Positions 8,769 through 63,034 of a stretch of DNA of 64,000 nucleotides are shown one piece after another. The notes beneath the pieces were generated by a model. It was not told where the DNA came from. It was given only the letters and a program-made list of their open reading frames with translations, and ran no database searches. A program made the translations under genes and the position numbers. The DNA is from Mytilus galloprovincialis. Lineage: Eukaryota; Mollusca; Bivalvia; Mytilida; Mytilidae. Positions within the stretch are counted from its first letter, which is position 1. Each line of letters opens with the position of its first letter. The stretch covers positions 60,970,181-61,034,180 of the forward strand of contig NC_134848.1 in assembly GCF_965363235.1 (NCBI RefSeq), read 5' to 3'.

Positions 8769-11700
8769 ATGGCCATCACAGTGACTATAGAATACCAGTG
8801 AGTTTATTATTTTAGCTTTATTTTTAAAAGCAAACATTAGACTTACTAGATCAATTTTTGTATGTGTATATGTTTGGTCAATTCATGACTGAATTCATCA
8901 CTGAAACAAGGGAGATAAATCTAAAGGCTAACATGTAATATGCATATTGAATTGTCTTGAAAGATTTCATCTTCGCCAGCCAAGGGTTACGATCCACTTC
9001 CCGAGGATAGCTAGTGAAGATGGAAAGATTTATAATGTGACACCAACTTCAAAACATGCCATACTATTCCATTTATCGGCTTGGATTGGTACATGTGAGA
9101 TTTTGCTTTTTCCGACGTAGTCGGTATAGTTTCGGTTTGTGCCCTTTGAACTTAAGGACGCTTAACTATTGCAACAGAATACGCATGCTCGAAAATCCTT
9201 TCTGTGATTGGACAAAAATGCTGTCATGGTGGGTGATTTGGTTGTGTTTGCAAAAACGTCTCGTTAATTATATCGTGATGGAAAGCAAGTGAAAAACTAT
9301 AAATATTTGAACTAGATCTTACAAAGATTTATATTTTTATTAAAATAATTGTTTCTCCAATAGCTCTTTGCATCCGTGACAGCTGTTTATTCGGGACAAT
9401 TATATAATTTTTAATGTAAACTTTGTTGTAAGAACGAACATGACTTTTGGAACGCACCTACGCATGTGAGATTTCCGCGGGTTTTGGTGAATGTAAACAG
9501 AAAGATACGAGGACCGAAAATACTGAACACAAACAGAGAAAACGTTATTTAAATGGTATCTTTGTGTTTCTGAAGGTTATCGAAATGATAGTTTTAAACA
9601 TATACTCAAAATTAATTACGTCGGATATCTTTTTTAAAGATAGTTCTTGTTTCAATTCTGCTAAACACAAATTTTATCTCAGTAACTATTAGGTTGTTAC
9701 ATAAAGAAACAAGAAACTTTAGAACACGAATGTGAAGTATATTTAACCAGCATTCAGCATTGATTTTAACCTAGTAAACTCCTAAGCCTGAACTCATCCT
9801 TTTATATACATTGTGGTACATAAATCGGTTATTATTCATACACAATAAACCTTCTTTCAGTTTCCTATTTAAGTTTGCAGATCTATTGGTTAAATCATGT
9901 TCCCAAGGCTAGTCTGGAATAAAGGCGAAATGTATTTATTAATTTTACCTCTTTCTGCTTTAATTTGGATCTAAACAGTCACATTTATATAAATAACCTA
10001 ATCCTAATAAATTGCAGTTTGTATTTGAAAGACCAAAATTATGGTAAGTACTTAGCCATGTTAGCCAAGTATTCTGAGTAACCAAGGACGCACATATACA
10101 TGCGACACCATGTCTTTAAATGAAACTTGGAACTGAGTTTCATAAAACAAAAAACAGTGAGAAGTGAAGAATAAAACTATCCTTTAAATGATTTTTTCTT
10201 TACATTGCAGCGTGAGAATGAACATTTTCAGTCGACAAATGACCTGAAATTGTCTTTGGTTTATATTATTTGAGATTATTGCTTTTTTTTCAAATTTCCC
10301 ATAACAGATTAATATTTATAACCTCTGCCTCGTCTTAACTTATCATAAGAATTCAAAGATAACAATACAATACAATACAATACAATATGCTTTATTTCAA
10401 AAACACTTCGCCACATTGACATGTGAAACAAGAGGTAAATTACAAAATAACAAATGTACTGTTTTGCTTTATTTGTATCAGGACAGTCAAGAACAACGCT
10501 GATTTATATTTGTTATTTGTGATTCCTCTTATTTTATATAGGTATGGGTGATGTTCAGGTGGACGATTTGAGAGGTTGAAGGAGGAGATTCTTGTCGTGT
10601 ACCCGGACGCAGTCGTTATGAGCACCATGGGACCAGAATGTAAAACAATTATTATATATTATGGCATGCATCCGTAAATAAAAAAAATCCTTTTTATTGG
10701 TTGAACAATCTAATTTAAAAATTTGTCACGGAAATGAAGATTAATAAAATTTCCTAATTGCTTTAACAACCCCAAGAACCTGAATAAACTAAACGTTATT
10801 GCCATATTCCTAAAAGTGTCATATTTGCTCCTCGATGAAGAGAGAAGCATACCGTGTCAATTGTTGGATCTTAAATAAAGAAACACATTAAAACGGCGCT
10901 GCTTAATCAAAAGAAAAAAACAAAATCCTATTTTTTGTTCCTTGATATGGTGTTCACAGTCTTTAATGTTTAAGTGATCGAAGAAATAATGATGAACACA
11001 GTAATATATTCGATTTTTTTTTTTACTTTATACTACAATATCAGTGCTATGACGTTTTCTAACTTCTAATTTGAATTGTTTAACACTTGTCATTTCTTGA
11101 CCTTTTATAGCTTTCAATGCGGAATGGGTTTTGCTCATTGATGAAGGCCGTACGGTGATAATTAATGGTTACTTTTGTGCATGTCATTTGGTTTATCCTA
11201 GAGATTGTCTCATTTAATTTGGCAATATTACCACATCTGCTTGCTTTTATATACACAGTAGTATACTCTTCTGTTCCTGAATGGGCGTTAATCAATCCAT
11301 AATCAATTTACCAATAAGTTTATGAGTTGGTTTTTTTTTTTTTTTTTTTTTTTTTAGTTTTCTGACTTTGATTTATCTGACACCTGGTTTAAGTATTGGA
11401 TGCATGATTTTGTTTTTTTAATTTGTTACTGGCTTTGAACAAGCTGTCAGTAACTCTGTGAACTCTCAAATATGTTACAGTACTTAGCTATGATTTGTTG
11501 TCGGGATACATAAATACCCTGTCACATCCACTCTGTGTTTTTGTAATATGTATTTCTGTTTTGTATCAATATAATGAGATAAACTCTTTTCAGTGAATTT
11601 TTTAGTTAGTTCTTATGTTGAACTGTTACCCTTCTGTTCCTGGTTGGCGAAGAGTTACCGCGCCCCCCTTCTAACTAGTTTAGCCCCGCCAAATTCTGTA

Positions 11701-13308
11701 TGTACCTTTATTCCAGCGGTTGCTATTTGTTGCTGTATATGTTATTTGTTTTTCGGTCATTATTTTGTTCTGAAATTATACCGTTATTTTTCGTGTTTGA
11801 ATTGTTTTACACTCGTCATTTAGAGGCCTTTTCTAGCTGACTAATAGTCTATGCGGTTTGAGTTTTACGCATTGTTTGAAGGCCGTATGGTGACCTTTAC
11901 TTGTTAACTGATGTGTCATGTCATGTCTCGCGTTGAGATTTGCTCGTTGACGCACATCTACTTTGTTTGTAATGACCCAGTTACATGTTTAAATACATGT
12001 AGATCTCAATGTACATTTACGATACACAGACATAGAAAAACCTCTTATTCAAAATTGGCGATCAATAGATCAGTTATTGTGAAAGGTCTATATCGCCTCG
12101 CAAGCTTGACATTGTACCTAATCTGGACGAATTGTAAAATGGTTATTTAACTTTCATAAACTACGCATTATATAATTTTCACAAAAAACGAATACAAGTT
12201 ACTATAAATGGTCTTAGATCGAAGGACAAGCTTGCTTGTTTCTTTAATATATTATTACTAATTGTCCTGAAAATTGTTTATCATACACATGTAAGATGGG
12301 CTTTTTTATTGTAGCTTCATATGAAATTACAGTAGACGGTCATTTCGTTTTCTCAAAACTCAAACTCGGGGGTTATCCATATAATGATGACGTAAGTACC
12401 TTGTATGATATTGTCACGAAGTGTAAGTTACCTCATAATATAAGTTCCGAATGGAAAACGTATTCTTGCATATCCACTGGAATAAATACTACAGTACATG
12501 TATTTTTCTATCGAAATAGATGGTATAGAATATTTGTTCCAGCAGGAACAGATATTATGATAGTTATCAAAAGTACCAGGATTATAATTTAGTACGCCAG
12601 ACGCGCGTTTCGTCTACATAAGACTCATCAGTGACGCTCATATCAAATATTTATAAAGCAAAACAAGTACAAAGTTGAAGAGCATTGCGGACCCTTGTTT
12701 ATAAGAAAGTTTCCTGGGAAACGTCAGTTAGGTAGAACAAGTATACAATGTAGCGCAAGGACGACGTTTCAACTGTTTTAGAGTTTGGTATGCTATATTC
12801 TGACACAATATTATTTTCAGCCATGCATGGCATAACACGAATAAAACAACAGTATACAAATCATATTATAGAAAATCTAAGACCTAGCAACACGAACCCA
12901 AGCAAAAACCGGGGTAGTACGATAAACCAATGATAGGTCGAGGAACGTTTAAACAATTTTTTTAATCTTTTTTTTTTATTTGACGATAATTTAAACATTT
13001 CCTGAAATTCCATTGTTTTGCCATGAAAAGCCAGAATGTCTCTTATTCTTTTCGTGTACTTAATTATAGCGTACATGATAATATTAAATTAATAGTTTAT
13101 CGAAAGTACTCCATTCTTGATAAAAAAAAAAACTTCACATTGTTTTTATTGTATTATATTTTTAGTGGTAACTGATTATGTATTTTGAAATATAACAACA
13201 TATTTCAAGGTTGATTCATTACAGATAATGCAATGTGTACGGATAGTTCACACTGGTGGTACGCCGGAAGTTGTAAAGCGAGCTAAAAAGCCTACCTTTC
13301 TAAAATAG
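8769..13308 (+). CDS. Selenoprotein W-like (Rdx family) protein, four exons, in-frame TGA = selenocysteine
   Basis: Exons at 8769-8797, 10542-10639, 12315-12391 and 13225-13308 join with matching phases at GT..AG borders (donors GTGAGT, GTAAAA, GTAAGT; acceptors TATAG, TGTAG, ACAG). They give 95 residues starting MAITVTIEYQYGUCSGGRF and ending at TAG. Known family members (SELENOW, MIEN1) are small thioredoxin-fold redox proteins of about 85-115 residues with a CxxU or CxxC loop after the first strand. Here Tyr9 and the TGA at codon 13 (10549-10551) fall exactly where vertebrate SELENOW has Tyr9 and Sec13. Later segments also fit: RFERLKEEILVVYPDAVV (helix and strand), SSYEITVDGHFVFSKLKLGG (the typical 'FEVxVNGxLVFSKL' hairpin) and a C-terminal helix with GGTPEVV. 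A SECIS-like stem-loop lies in the 3' UTR at 13469-13566. Odd point: the partner Cys10 is Gln, and Cys14 directly follows Sec. Introns hold several repeats. No transcript evidence is available. Confidence 0.85.
10358..10450 (-). mobile_element. 3' end of a LINE with (TATTG)n tail
   Basis: Read on the minus strand, TTTGAAATAAAGCATATTGT is followed by four TATTG repeats. This is the same arrangement as the LINE ending at 63034 (GAAATAAAATG plus a short tandem tail), but with a different tail unit. Short 3' tandem tails are known for CR1/L2-type LINEs. Only the tail and a little 3' UTR survive, in intron 1 of the selenoprotein gene. Confidence 0.55.
11035..11310 (-). repeat. Dispersed mussel repeat, family B, decayed copy
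   Basis: It shares TTGAATTGTTTAACACTTGTC, GCTCATTGATGAAGGCCGTA and ACCACATCT blocks in the same order as copies at 40990 and 11785. Longer relatives in forward orientation are at 48745 and 55455. It lies in intron 2 of the selenoprotein gene. Confidence 0.65.
11600..11960 (-). repeat. Dispersed mussel repeat, family B, longer decayed copy
   Basis: The blocks TTTAGCCCCGCCAAATTCTG, GAATTGTTTTACACTCGTC, GGCCTTTTCTAGCTGACT and GAAGGCCGTATGGTGACC match, in reverse, the forward copy at 55455-55790. No protein-coding part is evident. Confidence 0.65.
12570..12770 (+). repeat. Dispersed mussel repeat, family C, 5' part
   Basis: It carries ACCAGGATTATAATTTAGTA then GCCAGACGCGCGTTTCGTCT and ACATAAGACTCATCAGTGAC, followed by AAGTACAAAGTTGAAGAGCA. 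It lies in intron 3 of the selenoprotein gene, and its first bases overlap the apparent open frame that runs on past exon 3. Confidence 0.75.
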
Positions 13309-13468: not shown

Positions 13469-13566
13469 AGAAGACATGTATGTTCTTAAAAAATGACATC
13501 TAAACATAAAAATCTGAATCATAAGATGAGTTTAGATTGATGAATTATAAGAATGATCTGTCTTCT
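13469..13566 (+). promoter_or_regulatory. SECIS element (form 2-like) in the selenoprotein 3' UTR
   Basis: Helix I is formed by AGAAGACA (13469) with TGTCTTCT (13559) and by TTCTTA (13483) with TAAGAA (13548). The quartet strands are ATGA (13493-13496) and TGAT (13538-13541), giving the tandem G.A pairs needed for SBP2 binding. Helix II pairs ATCTAAAC with GTTTAGAT over 8 bp without mismatch. An A-run starts 10 nt after the quartet strand ATGAC, where the family has its conserved AA. ATCT and AGAT could form the extra mini-helix of a form 2 apex. The element lies about 160 nt after the stop codon, inside the 3' UTR, as known SECIS elements do. Confidence 0.85.
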
Positions 13567-13583: not shown

Positions 13584-13589
13584 AATAAA
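13584..13589 (+). terminator. Polyadenylation signal AATAAA
   Basis: This is the first AATAAA after the selenoprotein stop codon, giving a 3' UTR of about 300 nt that includes the whole SECIS stem-loop. Confidence 0.5.
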
Positions 13590-22674: not shown

Positions 22675-25578
22675 ATGGACAGAGTTCACAATAACCAAAA
22701 AAATGACGAAGATGAAAATGTTTATGGAATGAGAAAAAATACTTTGTTGGAAAAATACGGGGTTAAACGATTTCCTTATCGTGGAAGGCGTAAATACACA
22801 CCATTAGTTTACCAATATTCAGACGGAGGGATAACAATCTCAAATGATGTTTTCGGCTTGACAATCAGGCAGTTTGAGCGAATGTTCAAAAAATGCTTAG
22901 ATAGACGGAAAACAAAAGAACAGTGGATACTGAACCTTAGATATCCTGACAAGTCTTCAAATGAATATCTGGAATACTTAGACAAATGTACAGACTGCGA
23001 TGAAGGTATTTTCTTTGATATATATGTATAATTTTAGATGATGACATGTGTCTACTAGGTTTCGATGTAAAAAGTAAACTATAAACAATACCATACTCTA
23101 ACATGGCATTCAAAAATTCAAAACATTAAGTTCCTTATTAAATGGCAAAATTAAAGTTTCAAACACATCACCCTTATCAAATAGTTATTGTAGATATATT
23201 ATAGATTTTGATGTTGCACAAATTAGTAAATCATCGAAAAAAGGGGTGGAAACCAAGATTGAAATCAAAAATAGAGTCATGAGCCTATACTTAAGTTCTT
23301 GTCATTTGCTTTTATAGAAAACTGAAGGATTAAACCTGGTTTTATAGCAAGCTAAACATGTCACTTATATGACAGTCGCATAAAATTCCATTTTATTGAC
23401 AATAGTAGTAATTAAAAAAAACACAATCTATACTTGGTTTTGAAAGCCTTCTCTTTCTGAAACGTTCATCATTTTATGACAATAAATACTTGGCTTACAT
23501 TTTACGACGCTGTACGATATTTTTTAATGCATGCAACAAATCTCTGAAATATACTTTGGCATGTACAAATTTCATTTTAACAGTTTTAAAATGTGTAAGT
23601 ATATAGATATATGTATATTTGTACATATTTGTAGGGTACTTAGCTTGGGCTGACAATTACTCAAAAGTAAAAGACTTGGTAAAACAACTTATATAAAAAA
23701 AATGTTACTGAAATAGACATACGTAACAGACAACGACTATTTATAATACTTGATATGATCCATAAAGTCCATACCCCAAATTTAAAAAAAATATCAAGTG
23801 GAAGTTTAGCAGAAGGGCTGGATTTACCAGGTAGTGACTTTGATGTGATGTATGTCACTTATGAAGTACATAGTGATATTGAGAATATACGGGATATCAA
23901 AGACCAAGCACAACGTAGTGAACTAGTTATGGAGAAATCTATTGATCATCCTGGATTTACTAGACTTAAATTCATTGCAAAAGGACAAACGGAATTGGAT
24001 TCTCATACAAGTACTGGAAAAGGCTCATATTTTTCAATCAACGATTTTTTTAATACAATGAAGCCAACATTTGGGAAGTTACCACTTTCTCTACATGGCC
24101 CTTGTCTTTCAGACCCCAGTCAGAATTTTGATCTAGCATTCTGCTTACGAAGTAAATATTTACCTACTTCTGTAATTCCATGGACAATACGTCATCGACA
24201 GCAATGGCCCCCTAATCTCGTAATTGACAAGATTAAAAAGGGTGGATGTTTGTTAGTACCCATAGGACCTAAGATCGGGTCAGGTTGCAATTTATTATGG
24301 CGAATATCGTTCTCCGTTGCAGAAAAACTACTTGTTCATTCGTTCAACTTCACTCAACTCTTATGTTATAGTCTTCTCAAAGTAACATTAAAGAGTATTG
24401 TTAACAAGAATGAAGATGTCAACGATTTACTGTGTTCTTACTTTTTGAAGACGGCTTTATTCTGGGTCTCAGAAGAGGTCAACTTAGAAATGTTTCAATT
24501 GCCCAAACTGTTTATTTGTTTTTCTCTCTGCCTTGATAAATTAATGTTATGGGTAAACAACTGTTATTGTCCGAATTTCTTTATACCTGAACATAACATG
24601 TTTCTAGGAAAGATTGATCAAAGTAATAATAGAAGACTGCTCAGTGTACTTGAAAGTATTAAATATGGTGGGATTTGTGGGTTGATGACAGATTTAGTTT
24701 CGTCTGACAATGGAAATAATAGTTTATTGAGAACAAAGGATGAAACTTCGTTCATCATGTTAGACTTTTTATTTTACAGGATGTGTGGATCGTATATGGC
24801 TCCAATATATTCACGTTTTTATGAAGTATTGTCATTTATTGAATCTTTACTCATGTATGAACAATCTGCATTTATTGTTGGTGTGTGTAATTATTGTAAG
24901 GCTAAAATCAGTCAATTTGCAGCACAAATACCGCCACTACAAACCACCTTAAATAAAGACTCCTACATGCACAAACGTTATCATAGACATTTACAATACG
25001 GTACCGAGACAGATGCCGTGTCAGGTTGGTTGTTATACGCGTCATATTATTATGTGACAGGTCAGTACAAAGCTACACTTGAAATAATAGATTATATTCT
25101 TCCACGATGTACACCAGAAATGATCCCAATTGGCTGTCATGACTATGATGATTGTGATGTGTATTACTACAGAAAAAATGCTCATCCCACATTCACATTA
25201 GTTGAAAGAATGAAAATGGCTATTAATTACGTGCAACACTCAGGATTAATACCTGAAGAACTAGTACTGGAGGTTCAAGACAGGGATATTGATATACCGG
25301 TCATTGTAATGTCTCACTGCCTTAGATTTCTATGCTTTTATCATCTAGGTGATATTTCCAGTAAAAAACGTGCATTACGAGATTTATATTTAACATTAAA
25401 AGATCCACATAATATGCAGTTAGGTAAATTATCAGACTCGATTACAATACTTGGTATATGTTATGAGATAGCTGGTGATAAAAACAGAGCATATCAGTGT
25501 TATGAAGAGGCTCTGAAATGCGTAGGCATATTACGTAGTACAGCAAAAATAAGGAAATCAAAACTTTTGGAGATTTAA
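22675..25578 (+). CDS. cGAS-like receptor (Mab-21 nucleotidyltransferase) with TPR-like C-terminus
   Basis: The large exon encodes 607 residues from its first ATG (23755). GSLAEGLDLPGSDFD (16-30) is the nucleotidyltransferase G-S motif with acidic residues Asp28 and Asp30, and Asp126 in NFDLAFCLRSK gives the third metal ligand, so the triad is intact. LWRISFSVAEKLL and LCSYFLKTALFWVSEE match the Mab-21/cGAS spine. From about residue 420 to 590 helices of TPR type follow (AVSGWLLYASYYY, LCFYHLGDISSKKRAL, LGICYEIAGDKNRAYQCYEE). Family members make cyclic dinucleotides on ligand binding and signal to STING; no zinc-ribbon cluster is seen. An upstream exon (22675-23005; acceptor TTTTTAG, donor GAAG|GTATTT) joins in phase to an acceptor at 23634 and reads YLAWADNYSKVKDLVKQLI, the expected N-terminal helix. 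It then meets TAA at 23694, beside an A8 run. The catalytic frame continues one base off. This is either a frameshift pseudogene, a sequence error, or use of ATG 23755. The first exon (110 residues, basic) has no known domain. Confidence 0.85.
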
Positions 25579-26342: not shown

Positions 26343-27050
26343 ATGGCCCCGTCCAAAAAGAGTTGAAAAATCTGCAATTTCAATAGAAACACATGTGGAC
26401 ACAAACATGATGGTAGTCTCACATATCAAAAATCAGCTCAAAATCTGGAGGGGAATAGAGAAAAAATCCGTATAACTTCGATTTTCAATAATTTATCATA
26501 GTCCAAAGCCCTCAATTTCAGCGAGAATAAGCAGAGCGGAAGAAACTTAAGCTTGTCCTATAACTCATCATGGTTAACTCACATACCAAAAATCAGCCCA
26601 AGATCTGAATGCGTTAAGAAAAAAAATCCGTATAACTGTGATTTTCAACAATTTCTCAAAGTCCCGTAATTTCGACAAAAACTAGTGGAGCGGAACGAAA
26701 CTTAAACTTGATCTGTAACTCATCATAGTTAACTCACATACCAAAATTCAGCTCAATATCTGAAGGCGTTTAGAAAAAAAGTTCGTATAACTGTGATTTT
26801 CAACAATTTTTCAAAGTCCAAAGCCCGTAATTTCGACAAAAAATAGTGAAGCGGAACGAAACTTAAACTTGATTTGTAATTCATCATGGTTAACTTACAT
26901 ACCAAAAATCAGCCCAATATCTGAAGGCGTTTAGAAAAAACTCCGTATAATGGTTTGTTGTGGAATGACGGAATTACGGAAAGACGGAATTTTGGAATTT
27001 CGAACAAGGGTAAAACTATATGGCACCGACAACTTCGTTGCGGGGCCATA
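26343..27050. mobile_element. Non-autonomous element with GGCCCCG ends and internal tandem units (family I)
   Basis: It begins AATGGCCCCGTCC and ends GTTGCGGGGCCATA, an inverted pair. Inside, a unit of about 150-180 bp is repeated four times, each with CATACCAAAAATCAGC-type and CGTATAACTGTGATTTTCAA phrases and GGAACGAAACTTAAACTTG. Open stretches at its 3' end (26909-27176) are by-products of the repeat. Confidence 0.7.
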
Positions 27051-36664: not shown

Positions 36665-39600
36665 TTATATCTTGACCATTGACAAACAGGTTTCTTTGTG
36701 CAGATATACCTCGATATCAGGTGTAATCGAAATCGTATCACCTTTATACAAGAATACCATAACAACAGCTATACCGATGTGATCGAAGTTTGTACCCACA
36801 CCTCTATCGGTATGCTGGGCAACATAACCAGCCATGATATTTGCTTTATTTCTGTTGACTGTAAAGGCCGCTGCATCGGTATGCGATTTTACGATAGCTA
36901 TGACTTGATAAAGCCCATAATCCCTGGTTGTAAATCTTCCTGAGGACTTTAATTCTGTCAAACTTCCAACTCTATATGATGTTTTGATGTCTCCAAATTG
37001 GATGTTATGTCCCCTTTGCACAGTTGCATCTGCACTTAAGCAAGCTGTAAATGCCACTTAAACGGAAAAAAAAAACAATCATGATATGAATATTTGTATT
37101 TATCATTTCACTTAGAACACTTATTAAAAATCATTTTCTAATCTATAATAAAATTATTATTGATAATAAAATACTATTAAGCATAATCAGCAGCTTTATA
37201 GGGCTTTGGGATTTATCTTGATTGTATGTTATCAGTAGCGTTTAGGGGCTTAAGCATTCACTTGCACTCCATATAATCAATACCGTTTAAAAGGAGGCGT
37301 TTGAATTTAACTGCATTTCATAAAATCAGAAGGCTTTTGGTTTTGCTATTATACATGTAACATGTAATAAGTAGCTTTTATAAGGCTTCTTGATTTACCT
37401 TCTTCACATATAATAAGTAATATCTAGACGGCTTTTGAATTTAACAACGTGATATATAATCAAAAGCGTTTAGAAGTCTTTTGGATTTACCTGCATTACA
37501 TATAATGAGTAACATTTATAGGGCTTTTTGATGTACCAGTATGACATACAATCAGTAGCGTTAAGAGGTTTTTTTATATTTACCTGCTTTTCATATGATA
37601 AGTAGCGTTTATAGGGCTTTTGGATTAACAAACATGACATATAATCGCTAACGTTTAGAGTGTTGTTTGATTAAACTGCATTACATATTATTAGTAGAGT
37701 TTAGAGGGCCTTTGAATATACCAGAATGACATATAAGCAGTAGCGTTAAGAGGGCTTTTGAATTAACTTGCTTTACATATAATCAGAGGGCTTCTCACTG
37801 ATATTTTTTTTTATATTTTTGTTAAAGGGCACAGTAAATACTTTGTCAAAATGAAATGAAAATTAAAACGAGCCAATTTAATTTTAGTCAAGGGGTTTGG
37901 TTCCACCTTAAGAATTGAAATACAAAAACGTTTTTGAGATCCTTTCTGTATTGTGAAACAATGATTTAAAACAGTTCCCCTATAAATAGCAAAATATCTG
38001 AAAGACATTTAAAAAAGTACAACATGAAGACAGACATTAGTTGTATCCCATGTAATGTCATTACCTAGTTTTGTCTTCATTGTTAACGTCTCTGTCTTCC
38101 GTTGAATAGTATCAACTTTATTTGATATGATTAATATCTGTTGATTCACGGTTGTAGAGCTGTCTGATTGGGTTGATTTACAGCATAATTCTCCTTAAAT
38201 AGAGTATCTTTTTTCTTTTATTTCTCGTCTTATTCTTGTCCTTAATTTTTGTTAATATGCTTGGTTCATATTTCATTTTTTGCTTCCTTGTTAATTTGTT
38301 TTAGTGATTAAGATTATAACACAATGTTGACTGCTGTATACGTGACATTTCTTCCTATCATGTCTATTTGTTTTGTTCACACATCGTTGTCAATATAATG
38401 GAATTGTATGCGACTGTCATACAAAAGAGAGGTTTAGATAGCTTTAAAACCAGGTTCAATCCACCATTTCTACATAAAAAAATGTCTGTACCAAGTCAGT
38501 AATATGACAGTTGTTATATATTCATTCGTTTGATGTGTTTTAGCTTTTGATTTTGCCATTTGATTAGGGACTTTCCGTTTTGAATTTTCCTCGGATTTCA
38601 GTATTTTTGTGATTTTATTTTCTTTCTCACGCGCAATGAACTTTCTTTACACAATGAGTCAAAAGCGTAAAGCTACCCGAATCATTCACATACGGAAAGA
38701 CATAATCATGCACACAGATCGAAAAATATTTTCCATCTATCAATATATAAAAAATATACGAGAGCGTTGATACAAAATTTGATATGCATCTAAATTTTTC
38801 ATTAATAAAAGACGAATGGCAATGGCATTAACTAGAACAGACAACAGCCGAAGGCCACCAATGGGTCTCCAATGCAACACGAACCTCCCGCACCCGGAGG
38901 AGTCCTTCAGCTGGCCCCTTAACAAATATATTACTAGTTCAGTGATAATGAACGTCATACAAAACTCCGAAATATACACAAGAAACCAAAATTAAAAAGC
39001 ATACAAGACTAACAAAGGTCAGAGGCTCCAGACTTGGGACAGGCGCAAGCATGCAGCGGGGTTAAACATGTTTTTTTTTAGATCTCAACCCTCCCCCTAT
39101 ACCTCTAGTCAATGTAGAAAAACAAACACACAACAATACGCATAGTAAAACTAAGTTTAAGAAAACTCCGAGTTCTATGTCAAAAGAGAGTCCTTCAGCT
39201 TTTAACTTTCAGGATATCTTCGATGTATATTGAGGAGCGCGAAAGATTTTTATTTGTTTGTTCTTGTTATGTATCTAATTAAATGTTAACCCTCATGACT
39301 ACCACGACTAAAAACCAAGTTAACAGAACATAGGAATTATATGAATTTAATTAGGCTAAAGCATATATCTAGGAAATCAAATAGATAGAGAAATAAATCA
39401 TACGCGTAAACAAATCCTCAGACAAAAAAAAATGTCCAGGATAAGAGTATTTCGGAAGAGTAAATTATCCCGGATAAGTGTATAGAAGACGCTAGTATAA
39501 AGTTGAAGAGCATTGAGGATCCATTATAACCTTCGATTGTGTAAGTTCCGTATTTGAATATCTTGTTGTATTCAACAGAATATATTTTAGCAAATAACAT

Positions 39601-44867: not shown

Positions 44868-45671
44868 TGTTAGTGACCTAATATGAGATATATGGGTCAG
44901 TAAATTCCATTTGGGGTGAAAGCGAAGCTTAAATCCCCATATGGAATTTACTGACCCCATATGTCTCGTATTATGTCACCAGCACACCGAGTAACGAATT
45001 TATCTTACCGACTATCTTCACATTTGGTATTTTGACTAGCGGCCTATCAAAGTGACCAAGTCTTCAATACTTAGTATTATTAAGATCATATTTCCATTTG
45101 TCTATACAGAAAACAAATGCCAACAAAAACACCTTTTTAGCTTTAAATTTGTTTTATGGATTTATTTCAATCGTTCATTGCATATATTGATTTCTACGTC
45201 TGTTAAATCCTTTCAGATTTCTTTTTTTGTGTAACCGGAGAGCACGAATTTCATTACAAAATTGCTTGTCTCCACCGGGACTCGAACCCGGGACCTCTGT
45301 GTTACAAGGCAGCGCGCTAACCGACTGAGCTAAAGAAGTACTTCCTTAGTTCAACCGCTTACGGCTGACTAAGTATCTACCAAATGTTCTAAGGGAAGCA
45401 ATCCCGTCACACTTCCCCCACCTCAAGAGTCATCATACCATTATGAAATGGAAGTAACTATGTTAGGCAAACAATAACAACTTGTTAGCTTTAAATATAC
45501 TTTATTAACTCATTTCAACCTTACATCATCAATGTTTTCGTCTGTTGAATCAGATTTTTCCTCAACACGTGTTTTTTATGTTATAAAGGGTTGTGGCATC
45601 TTCATTGTTTTGAAAGGGAAGTAACTTCTTACTAACCCCATATGATTGCTAACCCTATAAGGTAACTAACA
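44868..45671. mobile_element. Family K element with TGTTAGTGACCT ends
   Basis: The left end TGTTAGTGACCTAATA and the right end TATAAGGTAACTAACA are imperfect inverted repeats. Near the left end is a 37-bp-arm palindrome (44880-44916 with 44935-44973; GTCAGTAAATTCCAT in the arm, AGCGAAGCTT in the loop). A tRNA-like block (about 45235-45475) is inserted; the partial copy at 25850 lacks it. Confidence 0.65.
45270..45339 (-). repeat. tRNA-Thr-like sequence
   Basis: On the minus strand TTTAGCTCAGTCGGTTAGCG is a good A box, CTTGTAA an anticodon loop with TGT, and CCGGGTTCGAGTCCCGG a perfect T arm. The acceptor and anticodon stems have several mismatches, so I take it as a tRNA pseudogene or SINE head rather than a working tRNA-Thr. 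Confidence 0.5.
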
Positions 45672-49772: not shown

Positions 49773-52700
49773 TTATTTGATTTTAGTTATTGACAGACAC
49801 GAGTTCCAACTGCTTATACTCATAATCTTTCCAGCCTGCACGTACATTATGTCATTTACTTCAAGTCTTGCTGTAAAGATGATGGTTCCAGGATGTTCAA
49901 AATTTCCAATGTCGGTGTAATCCGTTGGAGAGTGTTTCGACACAAAACCATTGAATTCTTTCTTAGAGTTTATGTATACGTAATAATGTGCATTAAAGGT
50001 CCCAGACGTCACTGTAACAGTAATAAGATACAATCCTGCAGATGGACATCTAAATGTACCATTGGTTTTAAATGATGCTACATCGAATGTACCAATGATC
50101 GTTTTAATATCCGAAAACAAAATTACTGATTCCGCAGAATGTATCTTATCTGCATCAACACAGCCGGTCATGCTCACTGAAAGCAGAAACTAAGGTTATC
50201 TAAATAAGAACGCATAAGCTTATGAAATCATTTGTAACTCAATGCAAAAAAATCACACATTTTTGAAACTTCATAACAACGCACTGAACAAAGTAACTGA
50301 CACAATCCTTGACATTTTCGCATTACATTGGGTTTTTTAGGGTTTTTTTGTAGATCTTTGCAACTTACAATTTTTCTCTTTCCTTATTAGATTTTGCAAA
50401 ATATTTAGGCTTGTTTTGAGGTAAAACAAAGACCAAATATGTGAAAAAAGAATGTGTTCCAAGAATACTGATGTCCAGTCCGCATTATCGTTTTCTATGT
50501 TTAGCGAACCGTGAAAATGTGATAAAATCTCTAATTTGGCATTGGAATTAGAATGATCATATCAAAAGGAACATGTGTACTAAGTTTCCAGTTAATTGGA
50601 CTTCAACTTTATCAAAAACTATCTCGACCAAAATCTTTAACCTGAAGCGGGACAGACGGACGAACGGACGGACGCACATATATTTTGTAGCAGGAAAAAA
50701 AATGCCCCAAGATGGGACATAAAAACAAGTTCCAAAATTCGATCTAAAACATTTCATTAAATTGAATGTTATAAGGGAAAATAAGATACTGAAAATGTAT
50801 GTTCACAATACACTAGTCAAGACAAAGTAAATAGATATCTGTATTATTGCCTGGATTTCGTAGTCAGACCAGATTCAGATATTTCGCATGCATGTGCAAT
50901 CTCGGCTTATAGCAGATTTTTTTTAAACTGGTTAAAAAACAATTTTACGTTTATTTTCCCAATTAAGTTGTATCACATTTTTAATGTCCAATCTTTTAAA
51001 AGTCGACTGTGCGGCATTGGTTTTTGTCATTGTTGAAGGCCGTATGTTGCCTTTAATGGCTTACATCTACTTCATATGAAATTTTGAGGATAATTGTCTC
51101 ATAGGTATCATAACACATCTTCTTATTTCTATATTTATAGTTAAGTACATTTGTACAAAGCACTGTTTTAAAGATGTTGTCTTCCTGCGTATGTATGAAA
51201 TTAAGACATCACTAAGTCCATATGTTCAGCACCCTTTTTACAACACCATGTAATCTATATAAAACATACAACACTTACCTGCATTACTGACATTTGCAAT
51301 CTGTTGTTGATGCTTATCCAACTGTAACGACAAACCAGTTATACGATGTGCTACAATTTAGAAAGAAAACTATCAAAATACTTTGAAAGGTTAGATCTTT
51401 GTTCACAAATAAAATTGTTTTCGACTGTCAAATGAGAGGTTAAACTAAAGGTATAACACCATAGTTAATTCAACATTTTCTACAAAATGAAATGCCTGTA
51501 CCAAGTCAGCATTATGACATTTGTTTTCCATTCGTATGATGTGTTAAGCTTTTCATTTGGCGATTTGAAAAGGTTCTATCTCTTATGATTTTTCTTTAGA
51601 GTTCGGCATTTTGGTTATATGACTTTTTCTTACTAGTGCCAAAAATATTTAGAATATGAAAATATGTCAAAATGACTCTTTGCTCCTCTTACGCTATCGT
51701 ATTTTAATGTCGAGCGGTCTGAAAACCGTGTTTTGGCATATATTTTTAAAGTTCATAGGATAGTGTAGTTCAAAAAGTTATGACATCTTTGCAGCCTTTT
51801 TTTATTTTTGTTTTTAGTTTTGTTAACAGATTCAGTGATCACTTACATTTAATATATCCAAGTGAACTTGAAATTACAAATACTACCGACACAGATAAAT
51901 CTGCTTTATATTTAGACCTTTTTCTCGAAATGACTACTGATGGGAGGTTGAATACATAAATTTATGACAAACGCGATGATTTTAATGTTCCTATAGTCAA
52001 CTTTCCATTTCTGTGTAGCAACATCCCAGCGGCACCAGCATATGTGTCTTAATTGATACGTTACTCTAAGTTAGATCAAAGTACGTCGATTTTGTTGAAC
52101 GAGGAATACTGCTTTCTCAACAGTTGCTAAGATAGGGCTATGAATCAATCAAATTAAGGTCATCACTCAAGAAATTTTACGGTCGCCATCATGAGCTAAT
52201 TGGCCATTATGACACAAACGTGTTAGAAATCATATCTGATATTCTTCCTCAGTCATAATAACCTTCCATCATTACCGAACTGAACAAAGAAATAACACGA
52301 CGGGTGCCGTATACGGTGCAGGAATTGTTTACCCTTATGGAGCACCTGATTTCACTCCCGGTTTTAGTGGAGTTCGTGTTGTTTCTTATTTATTATTTAT
52401 AACTGTTGATGTAAATGTCCTTTTTTTTTTTAGTCTTTGTTTACTCCTTGATTTTGATTGTTATTGTCTTAATCTATAATTATGAAAGTAAATGTATCAA
52501 TGATAACTCAAGTCAACAAAGAAGTGCTGACTACTGGGCTGGTGATACTCTCGGGGAATTAAAACTCCACCAGCAGTGGCAAAATGGGCGCAGGACAATT
52601 GAGCGAAAAAATTAAAACTAATAAGGGACATTTGAGCGCCAACATTAGAGCCCATTTAAGCGCCGGATTAATCCGCTCACCTATATTTTCGATAGCCTAT

Positions 52701-54983
52701 TTTTTTCACCAAATTTACCTGGTTGAATAATGCTCACCTTACTTTATATACCATAAACAGTAATTAGGGCCCCGTCAAAGCCGGGTCGCCCTATAGTGAT
52801 CAGTCTGTCCGTCCGTCCGTTCGTCTGTCCGTCCGTCCGTAACACTTTGTGTCCGCTCCATATCTAGAGAACCATTATGATTTCATACTTTATACTTTAC
52901 ATGTTTATTAACCACCATCAGAGGGCGTGTCATGATGTATGTACAACTTCCTAGGTCAAAGGTCAAGGTAAAACAACTTTGGTTTCAGTTGACAACCCTG
53001 TGTCCTGTGGTGAAGATCGTGTCCGCTCTATATCTTGAGAACCGTTATGATTTCAAAGTTTATACTTGACATGTATATGAACCAACACCAGAGGGTGTGT
53101 CATAATTTATGAACGACTGCCTAGGGCAAAGTTCAAGGTCAAAAACTTTGGTTTCAGTTTACAACCCCATGTCCTATGGTAAAGATTGTGTCCGCTCTAT
53201 ATCTTGAGAACCGTTATCATTTTAAAGGTTATACCTGAAATGTATATAACCCAATATCAGAGGGTATCTCATAATTTATGTACAACTTCCAAGGTCAAAG
53301 GTCAAGGTCAAAAACTTTGGTTTCAGTAGAAAACCCCATGTCCTATGGTAAAGATCGTGTCCGCTCTATATCTTGAGAACCGTTATCATTTCAAAGTTTA
53401 TACTTGACATGTATATAAACCAACACCAAAGGGTGTGTCATAATTTATTTACAACTTCCTAGGTCAAAGGTCAAGGTCAAAAACTTTGATTTCAGTTGTC
53501 AAACCCATGTCCTATGGTAAAGATACAATTTTTTAATGCACATTATTCACAGCGGGGCCCACAGAGATGGCTTCCATCTCAATGATATCTAGTTTATATT
53601 GGTTTAATTTTTTAAGTTGTTTATATTTTCATCATGGAAATACAAGTTGTTGAAACGAACCAAGGAATAAAAAGTTTAATTTGTGATGGATTCCGATATA
53701 GGATAAACAAAAATAAAGATAAAGTATTGAAATACCAAGTATTGTACTTAGAGCCCATTTCGTACGTTCTCTAGGTTATAAATTCCAGGCTAGAACAGGC
53801 TTTTAACATTTGATTTAATTTTTTAGACTTTTAGTGCTGTATTTTAGTTGAAAAGTTTTATACTGTTTTATGTTGTGCTGTCTTGAGTCTATTAGTGCTG
53901 TATTTTAATGGACATGTTTTATATTGTTTTATATTGTGCTGTCTTGAGTCTATTTAACATTTTTTAAATTTATTATATATTATTTATTTATTTATTAAAA
54001 AGTGTTAAAAATATTTCGCTAAAATGGGCTTTGACAATTTTAATTTTGCTAAAATCGGTTAACAGTCTGGCGCTCAAATTGGTTCTACTATGGCGCTCAA
54101 ATGTCCACTTTTTTTTTCTCGCTAAAATGTCCTATCGCTCAAATGTCTTCCGCCGGGCAAAACCATCCCTCGAACCTGTTGGCCTTCTGGCTGATTTCAT
54201 GACCTAGGGCTGATAATGGGTCTGATATGAAAAATTCCAAATTATAATTTATATATAATATATATTAGGATATGCATTTGTATGTAGGACGCCAAAAGAC
54301 GTCCAAAAGTTCGTACGACGACGTTAAACATGTACAAATGTAGTCCATTAGATTTTAAAGATGCAAATTTTACATGCATCTACCCTCAACATACCTTGTG
54401 CTTCAGACAATGATCTTAGATATAACGTCATATTATAAAGGGCTAGGAAGTCTTGTCCTCTAGCTTGTTGAGTGATGTTCACTTGCAGTAAGCCTTGTTG
54501 GAGTGTTTTCATTACCGATTGTAAACTTGTCACATCTTTTAACTGGTTGACATTTTTCAACTGCGCCAAATCGTCAACCTCTTTTTGGAATTTTGACATA
54601 TTTGAAGTTAAATCCGAAACGTAACGCATTATTTGAGCTTGGAATATTTTTTCAATTGCTATATTTAGATTAATTTCATCTAATTTAATCTGTTGAAGCT
54701 CAGTCTCGTTTTTTAGACGTGAATACTCCTCAAAAATAGTTGAACAATTGTTTTCCAAATCCGAATAATTCTTATGTAAACTCTGAAAATCAGAGTGTAG
54801 TTGGGTAACAGCAAGTTCTAGTGTATGTCTTTGTTCTTTTTCTTCCACAAGAAGCTTCATTAAAGTGATAAAATGATTTTCTGTCAAACCACCGGAAGAG
54901 TCAGTTTGACCATCGAGTAAAAATCCCTCTGTTTTACATAGAAAACACAAAACGAGAACAACACATATGTACTTTCCAGTCAT
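49773..54983 (-). CDS. Secreted coiled-coil C1q domain protein, three exons
   Basis: Exons are 54983-54395, 51350-51279 and 50176-49773, all joined in phase 1 (donors CAAG|GTATG and CAG|GTAAG; acceptors TTGTAG and TTTCAG), giving about 354 residues. Exon 1 starts with a signal peptide (MTGKYICVVLVLCFLCKTEG), then a long helical region of coiled-coil character with several N-glycosylation sites (NYS, NCS, NET, NMS, NIT, NMT). Exon 2 adds a 24-residue linker (HRITGLSLQLDKHQQQIANV). Exon 3 is a gC1q domain with SMTGCVDADKIHSAES, GTFRCPSAGLYLITVTV and GTIIFTARLEVNDIMYVQA, ending in CLSITKIK. Such C1qDC proteins oligomerise through helix and head and act as soluble lectin-like immune factors. The reading frame is intact. 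The head is clearly diverged from that of the neighbouring membrane C1q gene. Confidence 0.88.
50520..50720 (-). repeat. Dispersed molluscan repeat with GACGGACGGACG
   Basis: GAACATGTGTACTAAGTTTC, GATTGG-like and AACCTGAAGCGGGACAGACG blocks are typical of an abundant repeat; it lies in intron 2 of the secreted C1q gene. An open frame over it is spurious. Confidence 0.6.
50985..51140 (-). repeat. Family B repeat, decayed reverse copy
   Basis: CATTGTTGAAGGCCGTATGT and GTATCATAACACATCTTCTT mark it. Confidence 0.6.
51470..51640 (+). repeat. Family D repeat, right part
   Basis: CAACATTTTCTACAAAATGA, GCCTGTACCAAGTCAGCATT and TTTTCCATTCGTATGATGTG; intron 1 of the secreted C1q gene. Confidence 0.65.
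51825..52400 (+). mobile_element. Broken reverse transcriptase fossil of a mussel retroelement
   Basis: The stretch encodes pieces with KSALYLDLFLEMTTDGRLNT, then DDFNVPIVNFPFLCSNIP, recognisable as the C-terminal part of a reverse transcriptase protein common in mussel genomes. It is an old partial copy with several breaks and no 5' part. Its 3' flank (TTTTAGTGGAGTTCGTGTTG) matches the tail at 42010. I cannot decide between a Penelope-like and another retroelement family. It lies in intron 1 of the secreted C1q gene. Confidence 0.6.
52515..54160. mobile_element. Nested elements: family G array inside a TIR element, next to family C
   Basis: A family C scrap (52520-52590: GTGCTGACTACTGGGCTGGT) is followed by a TIR element at 52593-54147. 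Its ends GGACAATTGAGCGA and TCGCTCAAATGTC are inverted and backed by further inverted blocks (GGGACATTTGAGCGCC and GGCGCTCAAATGTCC). Within it, 52768-53560 is a family G element: ends AGGGCCCCGTC and AGCGGGGCCCAC, a GTCC microsatellite, and four ~177-bp units each with CTATATCTTGAGAACCGTTA and AGGTCAAAGGTCAAGGTCAA. No coding capacity. Confidence 0.7.
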
Positions 54984-56984: not shown

Positions 56985-58090
56985 CATATGAATATATATA
57001 ATTTAGGGGTGGGGATCTCAACGGTTTTCGAGTTCTCAAACAGGTAGGGGTAGGCAGAGGATTTAGGGGAGGCGCCCCCCCCCTTTTTGGGAAAAAAAAT
57101 TGGTTGCTTATATAGGGAATCACTGAAGCGTATCTGGAGCGGGTCCCCTCTTAGGTCAGTCAGTGGGCCCCCACTGGGGGTAGGGTGACCCTAGGGACTT
57201 CCACTACATTTCATTTTATTTGTTATATTGTCCCATACATAAATATATATGGTTTAGGGGTGGTGATCTCATTGGTTTCCAAGTTCTCAAACAGGAGGGG
57301 TAGGGTGACCCCAGGGACTCACTCCCCCTATATTTCATTTAATTAGTTATATTGGCCCATATATGAATATATATTGTTTTGGTGTGGGGATCTCGACCGT
57401 TTCCAAGTTCTCAAACAGGAGGGTTGGGGTGACTACAGGGACTTCCCCTATATTTCATTTGATTTGTTATATTGTCCCATACATGAGTATATATGGTTTA
57501 GGGGTGAGGATCTTGACCATTTCCAAGTTCTCAAACAGGAGGGCGTACAGTGACCCAAGGGACTCCCCTATCTTTCGTTTGAATTGTTATATTGTCCCGT
57601 ACATGAATATATATGGTTAAAGGGTGGGGATCTCAACGGGTTTCAAATTCTCTAACAGGAGGGGGTTGGGGTGACCCCAGCGACTCTTCCTATATTTCGT
57701 TGATTTTTTACTGTAGTATTGTCATAAACATGAATATATATGGTTAAGGGGTGCGGATCTCGACCGTTTCCAAGTTCTCAAACAGGAGGGGTAGGGTAAC
57801 TCCAGGGACTCCCCCTATATTTAATTTTATTCATTATATTGTCCTATACTTGAATATATGCAGGGGCGGATTCAGTCGGAAAAGGGGGGGGGGGCGTGCA
57901 CCCCCTTAAATTTGCAAAGCATGGGTTGTTCTCAGCTTAATAAAGAATATTCCGATAATTTTACCTCAAATTTTTTTTAGCCTCGCCCTTTAAGTTTGTG
58001 CCCCTCCTAACCTAAAATCCTGGATCTGCCCCTCATATGGTTTAGGGGTGGGGAGCTCGACCTTTTCCAAGTTATTAAACAGGAGGGGGT
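56985..58090. repeat. Minisatellite, ~120-bp unit, about eight copies
   Basis: Each unit has TATTGTCCCATACATGAATA, TATATGGTTTAGGGGTGGGG, ATCTCGACCGTTTCCAAGTT and CTCAAACAGGAGGGGTAGGG. The first unit is enlarged by extra G/C-rich sequence, and a MITE interrupts the array at 57862-58035. Unit phase is kept at about 120 bp from 57230 to 57840. Open frames over it are by-products. Confidence 0.9.
57862..58035. mobile_element. MITE with CAGGGGCGGAT ends inside the minisatellite
   Basis: The left end CAGGGGCGGATTCAGTC and the right end CCTGGATCTGCCCCTC... reversed are inverted repeats. Flanking ATATATG and ATATGG of the array unit suggest a short target duplication. Ends of this type are known from hAT-like MITEs in many animals. 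Confidence 0.7.
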
Positions 58091-61487: not shown

Positions 61488-61537
61488 GCGGGAGAGGGGA
61501 GGCAACTGCCTTAGTCTGCGCTTTCCCCTCTTTCCCG
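61488..61537. repeat. GC-rich interrupted palindrome at the LINE 5' side
   Basis: GCGGGAGAGGGGA (61488-61500) faces CTTTCCCCTCTTTCCCGC (61520-61537) in inverted orientation, with two extra bases in the right arm. The loop contains GCAACTGCCTTAG. The block stands out against the AT-rich surroundings and lies within 25 bp of the start of recognisable LINE coding sequence. Confidence 0.7.
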
Positions 61538-61549
61538 CATCATATAATG

Positions 61550-63034
61550 GTTTAGTTGATATGAGTATTGCAGCACGTCTTCTTGATACTGATGAAGTCG
61601 CTGTATATTTTCGTTTATATTTGTTATTGTATGCAGATGATACTGTAATTTTAGCCGAATCGGCAGCAGAGTTACAAGCCTCATTAAATGCCATGTATTT
61701 ATATTGCCAAACTTGGAAAATGCAAGTAAACATATCTAAGACAAAAGCTGTAATATTTTCAAGATCTAGACTTAACACAGATAATATGAACTTTAAATAT
61801 AGTGGTGAAAGCCTTAATATTGTTACAAATTTTCAATACCTTGGTATTATATTTTCATGTAAGGGTTAATTTAATGACGCCAAAGCACATCTTGTACAGC
61901 AAGCAAGAAAAGCCATGTTTATAGTCTTAAGAAAGGCTAGGAAGTTGAATTTACCAATTGATATGCAATTAGAGCTATTTGATACAATGGTTGTACCTAT
62001 TTTGTTATATGGTGCAGAAGTATGGGGTTTTGAAAATTGTAATATTATAGAAAACTTGCATATGCAATTTTGTAAAATAATTTTGAAGGTTAAAAAAAGT
62101 ACTGCTCATTGTATGATTTATGGAGAATTGGGTAGAATACCATTACATATTTTTATTAAAGCTAGAGTGGTTGGTTTCTGGCAACGTATCATGTGTGGTA
62201 AAAGAGAAAAAATTTCATATACACTGTATTCTATATTGTATCAGCTTAGTAAAAGGGGTATCTACCACTCTAAATGGTTGTTAGAAATTAGAAATACTTT
62301 ATATGAATGTGGATTTAATTTGATTTGGGATGATCAAATAATTGCTAAATCTGATAATATTAGTAAGAATGTCAAGAAATGTTTAAGTGATAAATTTATG
62401 TTGAACTGGAGTAATAATGTTATGAATTCTGCAAAATGTCTTAATTACAGAATATACAAGTCTGATTTTTGTTTTGAGAAATATTTATCGGTGTTACCAT
62501 CTGATCTAAGAATGTATTTATGTAAATTCCGTTGCCTTAGTGATAAATTGCCCATTGAAACGGGCAGATTTTTTAATATTGATAGATCTGAAAGACATTG
62601 TAATCTTTGTAATGCTAATGAACTTGGTGATGAGTTGCATTACTTATTCAAATGTACCTTTTTCAACAATGTAAGAGCTAAATTTTTACCTTTAAATATA
62701 TGTAAAAACCCAAATGTTTTAAAATTTAAAGAATTGATGAATCAGATTTATTTACACTTACTGGAATAGCAAAATTTTCAATTTTGCTAAATTTTGCAAA
62801 AGTGTTATTAAAACCTTTTAATGCATGTGCTTAATCATGTTACTATAATTTGTACTTCCTGTCAAATATCTGTATTAATTATATATATACTATTATTGCA
62901 CCTTTGTTATTAAATCATGTTGTTCTAATGTATATATGTTCACACTTTTATTGTTTGTTAAAAAATGTTGTACTAACATACCCCATGTGGGGGCTTTAGT
63001 GAAATAAAATGTCTTATGTCTTATGTCTTATGTC
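61550..63034 (+). mobile_element. 5'-truncated LINE with reverse transcriptase C-terminal half and (GTCTTAT)3 tail
   Basis: One frame runs from about 61561 to 62769, interrupted by a single in-frame TAA at 61867. LLLYADDTVILAES is the catalytic YADD motif of the palm; WKMQVNISKTKAVIFS and FQYLGIIFSCKG are the following conserved motifs. After the stop the frame continues as DMQLELFDTMVVPILLYGAE (thumb). A zinc-knuckle-like CNLCNANELGDELHYLFKC lies near the end. The N-terminal endonuclease and fingers are missing. The 3' end (GGGGGCTTTAGTGAAATAAA) carries three GTCTTAT repeats. YADD, the C-terminal knuckle and the short tandem tail suggest a CR1/L2- or Jockey-like clade. It is dead but fairly young, with only one stop in about 400 codons. 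Confidence 0.85.

What the first reader, a model, noticed from the sequence alone, without database searches (positions are those of the whole stretch)
8769..13308. Selenoprotein W paralogue with a Sec-Cys dipeptide in place of Cys-x-x-Sec
Seen: four small exons with consistent phases give a 95-residue Rdx-type protein with an in-frame TGA at codon 13, the exact Sec position of vertebrate SELENOW, and a SECIS stem-loop downstream. Known: SELENOW uses CxxU (Cys10, Sec13). Here position 10 is Gln and position 14 is Cys (YQYGUCSGG). Inference: if real, the resolving thiol has moved next to Sec, so the protein would form a vicinal selenenylsulfide, a redox centre I do not know in this family. A gene finder would read TGA as stop and miss it.
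Basis: partly seen in the sequence, partly recalled or inferred. Interest (0 to 1): 0.92.

Follow-up and report, generated by a model that had tools for sequence, protein, structure and literature searches.

The report
Selenoprotein gene with rewired active site
This stretch holds a believable, easily overlooked gene for a small selenium-containing redox protein of the SELENOW/MIEN1 family whose active site lacks the usual partner cysteine and carries one right beside the selenocysteine instead; it looks like a new variant of a known kind, and whether it is conserved and works is still untested.

Summary
Four exons (8769-8797, 10542-10639, 12315-12391, 13225-13308; GT-AG introns) join to 288 nt coding a 95-residue Rdx-family protein with in-frame TGA at codon 13 (Pfam Rdx E=1e-10). 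A SECIS candidate lies 3' (core 13493-13541): the only hit of a strict descriptor in the window, with a full-length but sub-threshold SECIS_1 match. Codon 10 is Gln and codon 14 Cys; exon 2 supplies a G as third base of codon 10, so Cys is impossible there with this acceptor.

The label changes: the nearest solved chain is MIEN1 (E=2.3e-11), not SELENOW (0.18). Of 285 prokaryotic Rdx loci read, 242 carry TGA at the Sec position; Cys10 is kept in 241 of 241 readable and Cys14 occurs in 0 of 242.

The vicinal selenenylsulfide is inference only. More likely, also by inference, Sec13 works as a lone selenol through mixed selenenylsulfides. No relative from a mussel or any other mollusc was available, so conservation is untested and a young pseudogene remains open.

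The parts
8769..8797 (+). coding exon 1 (MAITVTIEY + two bases of codon 10); A at -3 and G at +4 of the ATG; donor CA|GTGAGT
   Evidence: sequence, frame and phase; aligns with the first strand of MIEN1 and SELENOW
10542..10639 (+). coding exon 2 (third base of codon 10, then YGUCSGGRFERLKEEILVVYPDAVVMSTMGPE and one base of codon 43); acceptor TATAG|G, donor AAT|GTAAAA
   Evidence: Rdx profile match spans residues 4-74
10549..10551 (+). in-frame TGA, codon 13, proposed selenocysteine
   Evidence: aligns with Cys13 of the MIEN1 and mutant SELENOW pieces
10552..10554 (+). TGT, Cys14, next to the proposed Sec
   Evidence: 0 of 242 prokaryotic TGA-type loci have Cys here
12315..12391 (+). coding exon 3 (two bases of codon 43, then SYEITVDGHFVFSKLKLGGYPYNDD)
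   Evidence: within the Rdx match
13225..13308 (+). coding exon 4 and TAG stop (IMQCVRIVHTGGTPEVVKRAKKPTFLK)
   Evidence: MIEN1 alignment runs to residue 91-92
13483..13553 (+). SECIS candidate in the 3' UTR, form-2-like: ATGAC at 13493, 8-bp helix ATCTAAAC/GTTTAGAT, A-rich loop with minihelix ATCT/AGAT, TGAT ending at 13541, lower helix GTTCTTA/TAAGAAT
   Evidence: partial folds; descriptor; SECIS_1 full length, 19.2 bits, sub-threshold
13584..13589 (+). first AATAAA after the stop codon, 43 nt past the SECIS core: candidate poly(A) signal

Best explanation
The fold core is largely kept but the active-site loop is changed from C-x-x-U-G-aromatic to Q-x-x-U-C-S. Most likely mechanism (inferred): Sec13, at the column of the second Cys/Sec of the motif, works as a single selenol. 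It forms mixed selenenylsulfides with a partner protein thiol or glutathione that are undone by an outside thiol, much as monothiol glutaredoxins work, with no internal Cys10-Sec13 exchange. Cys14 may tune or at times resolve Sec13. Shown: gene architecture, family, SECIS-like element, residues. Inferred: Sec insertion, expression, chemistry.
For: Spliced frame and family. SECIS; AATAAA. Core: among the columns that one search lists as conserved, the window protein has the commonest residue at Ile7, Tyr9, Leu22, Glu46, Asp50, Gly51, Phe55, Ser56, Lys57 and Pro64, and the residue class or the animal residue at Tyr45, Ile47, Gly62, Tyr63 and Asp68. Codon 10 ends in exon 2's G, and the codon in frame just upstream in the intron is AGG, so Cys10 is absent in either reading. 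Lone-thiol precedent in the family: 14-3-3beta binds at Sec13 of SELENOW and needs its own Cys191, tested with SELENOW(U13C) (PMC8508763, passages); mouse SelW(C10S-U13C), without Cys10, was used for NMR of that interaction, and glutathionylated SELENOW was isolated from rat muscle (PMC5364654, passages).
Against: No transcript, no relative from a mollusc and no Ka/Ks were available. Cys10 is invariant where read in prokaryotic TGA-type loci, 241 of 241, so its loss, with residues 14 and 15 and also the Gly at column 43 (172 of 174; Ser here), could equally mark decay. Normal SELENOW does form an internal Se-S bond in CxxU (PMC5364654; PMC8508763), so a lone selenol is not the family's usual way. 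SECIS_1 is below Rfam's threshold and no fold tried shows the whole SECIS. Donor 1 lacks the usual G at -1. A real Sec13-Cys14 partnership is not ruled out.
Confidence: 0.55

Rival explanations
1. Functional selenoprotein whose Sec13 and Cys14 form a vicinal selenenylsulfide redox switch.
For: Cys14 stands where prokaryotic relatives have Asn, Gly, His, Ser or Asp in 237 of 242, and Cys10 is gone; a Cys next to Sec appears just where the usual partner thiol was lost. Vicinal Cys-Sec is known at the flexible tail of thioredoxin reductase (recalled).
Against: No evidence of a bond. Sec13 is at the start of helix 1, where neighbouring side chains diverge and an eight-membered ring would need local unwinding (general structural knowledge; no model was made here). 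No conservation test was possible.
Confidence: 0.17
2. Recently duplicated or relaxed gene on its way to a pseudogene: the active site is decaying and the TGA persists by inertia.
For: Positions 10, 14 and 15, and the Gly at column 43, all depart from the family. SelW genes without the first exon are reported in Lottia and Trichoplax, and a Schistosoma isoform that its authors say may be an error (PMC3828610, passages), so altered copies occur.
Against: All three introns have GT-AG ends, the 95-codon frame has no other defect, similarity to MIEN1 is gapless at 29% identity, and quartet, helix and A-rich loop of the SECIS are present.
Confidence: 0.18
3. An ordinary C-x-x-U gene misread: wrong exon 1, an alternative first exon, or an assembly or allelic error.
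For: Exon 1 is only 29 nt, too short to stand on its own as evidence, and its donor lacks G at -1.
Against: Any exon 1 spliced in this phase to this acceptor gives codon 10 = NNG, which cannot be Cys; read through, the codon is Arg. Exon 1 has the family pattern (VTIEY) in the right phase and spacing.
Confidence: 0.1

Closest known systems
MIEN1 / Rdx12 (C17orf37; PDB 2LJK; that Rdx12 is C17orf37 is recalled)
   Same: Rdx family; gapless alignment over 89 residues, 29% identity, including VFSKLxxGGxPY and the stretch after the Rdx domain
   Different: MIEN1 has Cys in place of Sec and a CxxC pair of -225 mV (PMC3527542, abstract and passages) and is prenylated near its C-terminus (same passages); here Q-x-x-U-C and an end (KPTFLK) without a Cys-based prenylation box
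SelW2 (fish, frog, elephant shark; also planarian, Schistosoma)
   Same: Sec-containing relative of Rdx12 (PMC3316567, PMC3828610; passages); probably the true orthologous group
   Different: CxxU is described as present in all vertebrate SelW, SelW2 and SelV, except pufferfish SelW2c with CxxR; no SelW2 sequence was held, so no direct comparison
SELENOW (SelW1; mouse, PDB 2NPB)
   Same: short Rdx protein, Sec at position 13
   Different: weaker similarity (E 0.18, below even a bacterial chain, 2FA8, at 0.081), Cys10 (Ser in the solved mutant chain), Gly14, Tyr15, 3 more residues before the second strand
UxxU SELENOW of amphioxus and Ostreococcus lucimarinus
   Same: another departure from CxxU at position 10
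   Different: the Cys became Sec rather than being lost (PMC7539508, passages)
Prokaryotic SelW-like proteins
   Same: Rdx domain with TGA at the same column
   Different: 241 of 241 readable have Cys10, 0 of 242 have Cys14

Membership tests
Rdx family (Pfam PF10262 / TIGR02174) | profile match above curated cut-off | tested here: met
   42.1 bits against 22.6; 44.7 against 34.2
Rdx family (Pfam PF10262 / TIGR02174) | C-x-x-C/U motif (usual, not required by the profile cut-off) | tested here: not met
   Q-Y-G-U-C; only the Sec/Cys13 half is present
Eukaryotic selenoprotein | in-frame TGA aligned with Sec/Cys of homologues | tested here: met
Eukaryotic selenoprotein | SECIS in the 3' UTR | tested here: met
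   descriptor hit unique in the window; weaker support: SECIS_1 full length but below gathering score, no single fold shows the whole element
Eukaryotic selenoprotein | Sec insertion shown | not testable with these tools
   needs 75Se label or mass spectrometry
SELENOW (SelW1) | closest similarity to SELENOW | tested here: not met
   2NPB E 0.18 against 2LJK 2.3e-11; 9e-07 against 3e-17 pairwise, pieces of unequal length
SELENOW (SelW1) | CxxU | tested here: not met
MIEN1/Rdx12/SelW2 branch | closest similarity to MIEN1 | tested here: met
   only two animal chains could be compared, so no tree
MIEN1 proper | C-terminal prenylation box | tested here: not met
   protein ends KPTFLK; prenylation of MIEN1 from passages of PMC3527542, the letters of its box recalled

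The most novel reading that the evidence does not exclude
A clade of mollusc Rdx selenoproteins has traded the otherwise near-universal Cys10-Sec13 pair for an adjacent Sec13-Cys14 pair, giving a vicinal selenenylsulfide (or two-pronged Se/S metal-binding) centre inside a thioredoxin-like fold, a redox centre I found no report of in this family.
Probability: 0.15. Interest if true: 0.75.

Novelty: new variant of a known kind. Interest (0 to 1): 0.45.

Why it matters
CxxU is taken as the signature of SELENOW-type proteins; every prokaryotic TGA-type locus read here in which residue 10 is visible keeps its Cys (241 of 241). A SECIS-bearing member without that Cys would show that Sec alone can be worth keeping in this fold, bearing on the open question of what SELENOW and MIEN1 do: internal thiol exchange, or docking to partners through one selenol. 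It also offers a precise natural experiment (Q10, C14) and one more gene that standard annotation would be expected to truncate.

Tried and rejected
Tried without result: Rfam at gathering threshold (0 matches) and at looser thresholds over larger stretches (no SECIS listed); own genome (none held); tblastn in phages and plasmids (two remote records each; one Thermomicrobium plasmid gene proved on reading to be a CTSU SelW); viral contigs (none confirmed). Second copy in the window: none (the strong tblastn matches there are the query finding its own exons and are not evidence). Considered and rejected: Cys10 restored by another splice choice (codon 10 is NNG with this acceptor; Arg when read through).

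About the prokaryote survey. The PF10262 searches count 702 genome searches (a few genomes twice): matches in 5 of 5, 42 of 297, 84 of 199 and 95 of 201 genomes. By my count searches list 249 match rows, all read (90 as returned loci, 159 fetched); two further loci come alone. A first count on 186 loci was replaced by the position-based count on 285, and one search checked that all 242 stops are TGA. The 285 include genes reached twice: 202 distinct 21-residue contexts and 233 distinct 150-nt contexts among the 242. The HMM used for reading was built from the 34 loci, 33 CxxU and one CxxC, which leans towards Cys-bearing loci, though all 285 loci were read. Four loci with neither TGA nor Cys at position 13 (L154, L158, L173, L226) stand outside the two tallies, and L163 is cut by its contig end before position 10. 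One search used 175 distinct sequences of 182, after dropping L154, L158, L163 and L173. The sample is three phyla plus that scan; no eukaryotic relative beyond the two solved chains could be compared.
Full report
The observation. The protein, Sec as U, is MAITVTIEYQYGUCSGGRFERLKEEILVVYPDAVVMSTMGPESSYEITVDGHFVFSKLKLGGYPYNDDIMQCVRIVHTGGTPEVVKRAKKPTFLK. With Cys for Sec it matches Pfam Rdx at 1e-10 and CXXU_selWTH at 1.2e-11. Chance does not give this, even with splice sites chosen by eye.

The SECIS. ATGAC at 13493, an 8-bp perfect helix (ATCTAAAC/GTTTAGAT), an A-rich loop with a 4-bp minihelix, and TGAT ending at 13541 give the UGAN/KGAW quartet that is also described for Mytilus coruscus deiodinase SECIS elements (PMC8481496, passages); GTTCTTA/TAAGAAT can close below it. 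A descriptor of these features finds this place alone on both strands of 64 kb. Markov sequence of the same dinucleotide make-up gives 0.27 hits per two strands (30 runs) or 0.19 per strand (150 runs), about 0.003 per kb. The descriptor was written after seeing the candidate, which weakens that figure; a looser form adds one place, on the minus strand at 37276-37321. Other witnesses are weaker. SECIS_1 is the best of the five families listed for the 106-base stretch, full length on the + strand, but at 19.2 bits against a gathering score of 35, and it is not listed when longer stretches are searched. Of four free folds, two show the upper helix and minihelix, one the lower helix, none both. 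AATAAA follows at 13584.

What family. Among solved chains three match at E up to 1: MIEN1 (2LJK) at 2.3e-11, the bacterial Atu0228 (2FA8) at 0.081 and mouse SELENOW (2NPB) at 0.18. Pairwise, the 90-residue MIEN1 piece aligns without a gap over 89 residues at 3e-17, the 68-residue SELENOW piece at 9e-07. MIEN1 is human Rdx12 (recalled), the Cys relative of the Sec protein SelW2 of fish and frog (PMC3316567, passages); SelW2 is also reported in planaria and Schistosoma (PMC3828610, passages). So this is best called a probable SelW2/MIEN1-type Rdx selenoprotein. No tree was built, as no SelW2 sequence was held.

The odd active site. Residue 10 is Gln, 14 Cys and 15 Ser where MIEN1 has Cys, Gly, Phe, and SELENOW has Cys (Ser in the solved mutant), Gly, Tyr. 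A fourth departure lies outside the loop: Ser43, where 172 of 174 prokaryotic sequences and both animal chains have Gly. Intron 1 splits codon 10 as CA|G. Exon 2 gives the third base, G, so no exon 1 spliced in this phase to this acceptor could make Cys; the codon in frame in the intron just before exon 2 is AGG, Arg. PMC3828610 marks a splice site between the first and second coding exons of the SelW family in a figure legend and reports SelW genes without the first exon in Lottia and Trichoplax, and a Schistosoma isoform that it says may be an error. So the exon 1/exon 2 join may have been a site of change before; that Gln10 arose through it is inference.

How unusual. TGA stands at position 13 in 242; Cys10 in 241 of 241 readable, one being cut by its contig end; Cys14 in 0 of 242 (Asn 141, Gly 60, His 14, Ser 13, Asp 9, others 5). 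Residue 15 is Tyr or Phe in 230 of 242 and Ser in 1. Cys stands at 13 in 39, all with Cys10. Four loci have neither at position 13, two of them without Cys10. Many loci are near kin (202 distinct 21-residue contexts among the 242), so these are not independent events. In print, the variants seen were UxxU in amphioxus and Ostreococcus (PMC7539508, passages) and CxxR in pufferfish; ocean surveys list CxxU for all 48 and 427 SelW-like sequences (PMC1088965, PMC2398784, table passages), and a 2026 review lists only CxxU for prokaryotic PF10262, with a GxUC motif in an unrelated CopZ-like family (PMC13188914, passages). I saw no Q-x-x-U-C member in ten paper searches (capped lists; the term QxxU occurs in none of the 15 papers listed). 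That library lacks most subscription papers, and no supplements could be read.

How it most likely works (inferred). Most of the core that holds the fold is kept while the active-site loop is rewritten, and TGA and SECIS are kept. The simplest working reading is a lone selenol: Sec13 makes mixed selenenylsulfides with a partner protein or glutathione, undone by outside thiols. The family allows it: 14-3-3beta binds at Sec13 of SELENOW and needs Cys191, tested with the U13C form (PMC8508763, passages), the mouse C10S-U13C protein served for NMR of that binding, and SELENOW is found glutathionylated (PMC5364654, passages). Against it, ordinary SELENOW does form the internal Se-S bond of CxxU (same two papers). 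Cys14 may help, but a vicinal Se-S ring at the start of a helix is strained (general knowledge, not modelled here). Cys72 is the only other Cys. Decay of a young copy is the main sober rival, since several conserved residues changed together.

Verdict. Observation confirmed, interpretation partly supported, new variant of a known kind. The claim of a new redox centre rests on one genome and one adjacent Cys and must wait for relatives and chemistry.

Noticed in passing
window 12594-12637 (-): Near-complete hammerhead ribozyme (Rfam Hammerhead_1, 33.0 bits against gathering 34, E 2.4e-4 over the whole window) inside intron 3 of this gene, on the opposite strand; the repeat finder (seed 14, at least 30 bases) found no repeat between 8000 and 16000.
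   Followed up: partly
window 23683-25575 (+): 631-codon open frame with a Mab-21_C domain (E 1.9e-10) and a sub-threshold Mab-21 nucleotidyltransferase match.
   Followed up: partly
window 49776-50189 (-): Open frame with a weak, sub-threshold C1q domain match (E 0.0038); C1q proteins are numerous in mussels (recalled).
   Followed up: no
window 61489-62766 (+): Reverse transcriptase fragment (RVT_1, E 2.8e-9) followed by a 299-codon frame without a Pfam match, probably a decayed retroelement.
   Followed up: no
window 26418-26950, 52849-53524, 57177-57859: Long-unit tandem repeats of 155, 169 and 120 bp.
   Followed up: no
window 45267-45339 (-): tRNA-like match below Rfam's gathering score (26.7 against 29 bits, E 0.26).
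   Followed up: no
L001 589-837 (Thermomicrobium roseum plasmid NC_011961.1): SelW-like gene with in-frame TGA (YCTSUGY); the listed CDS (WP_012642931.1) starts at 655, past the Sec codon, so the record shows a truncated Rdx protein.
   Followed up: yes
L154, L158, L173, L226: Prokaryotic Rdx matches with neither Sec nor Cys at position 13 (residues Ala, Asp, Gly, Gly); two of them also lack Cys10. L158 is a weak match (E 4.3e-4).
   Followed up: no
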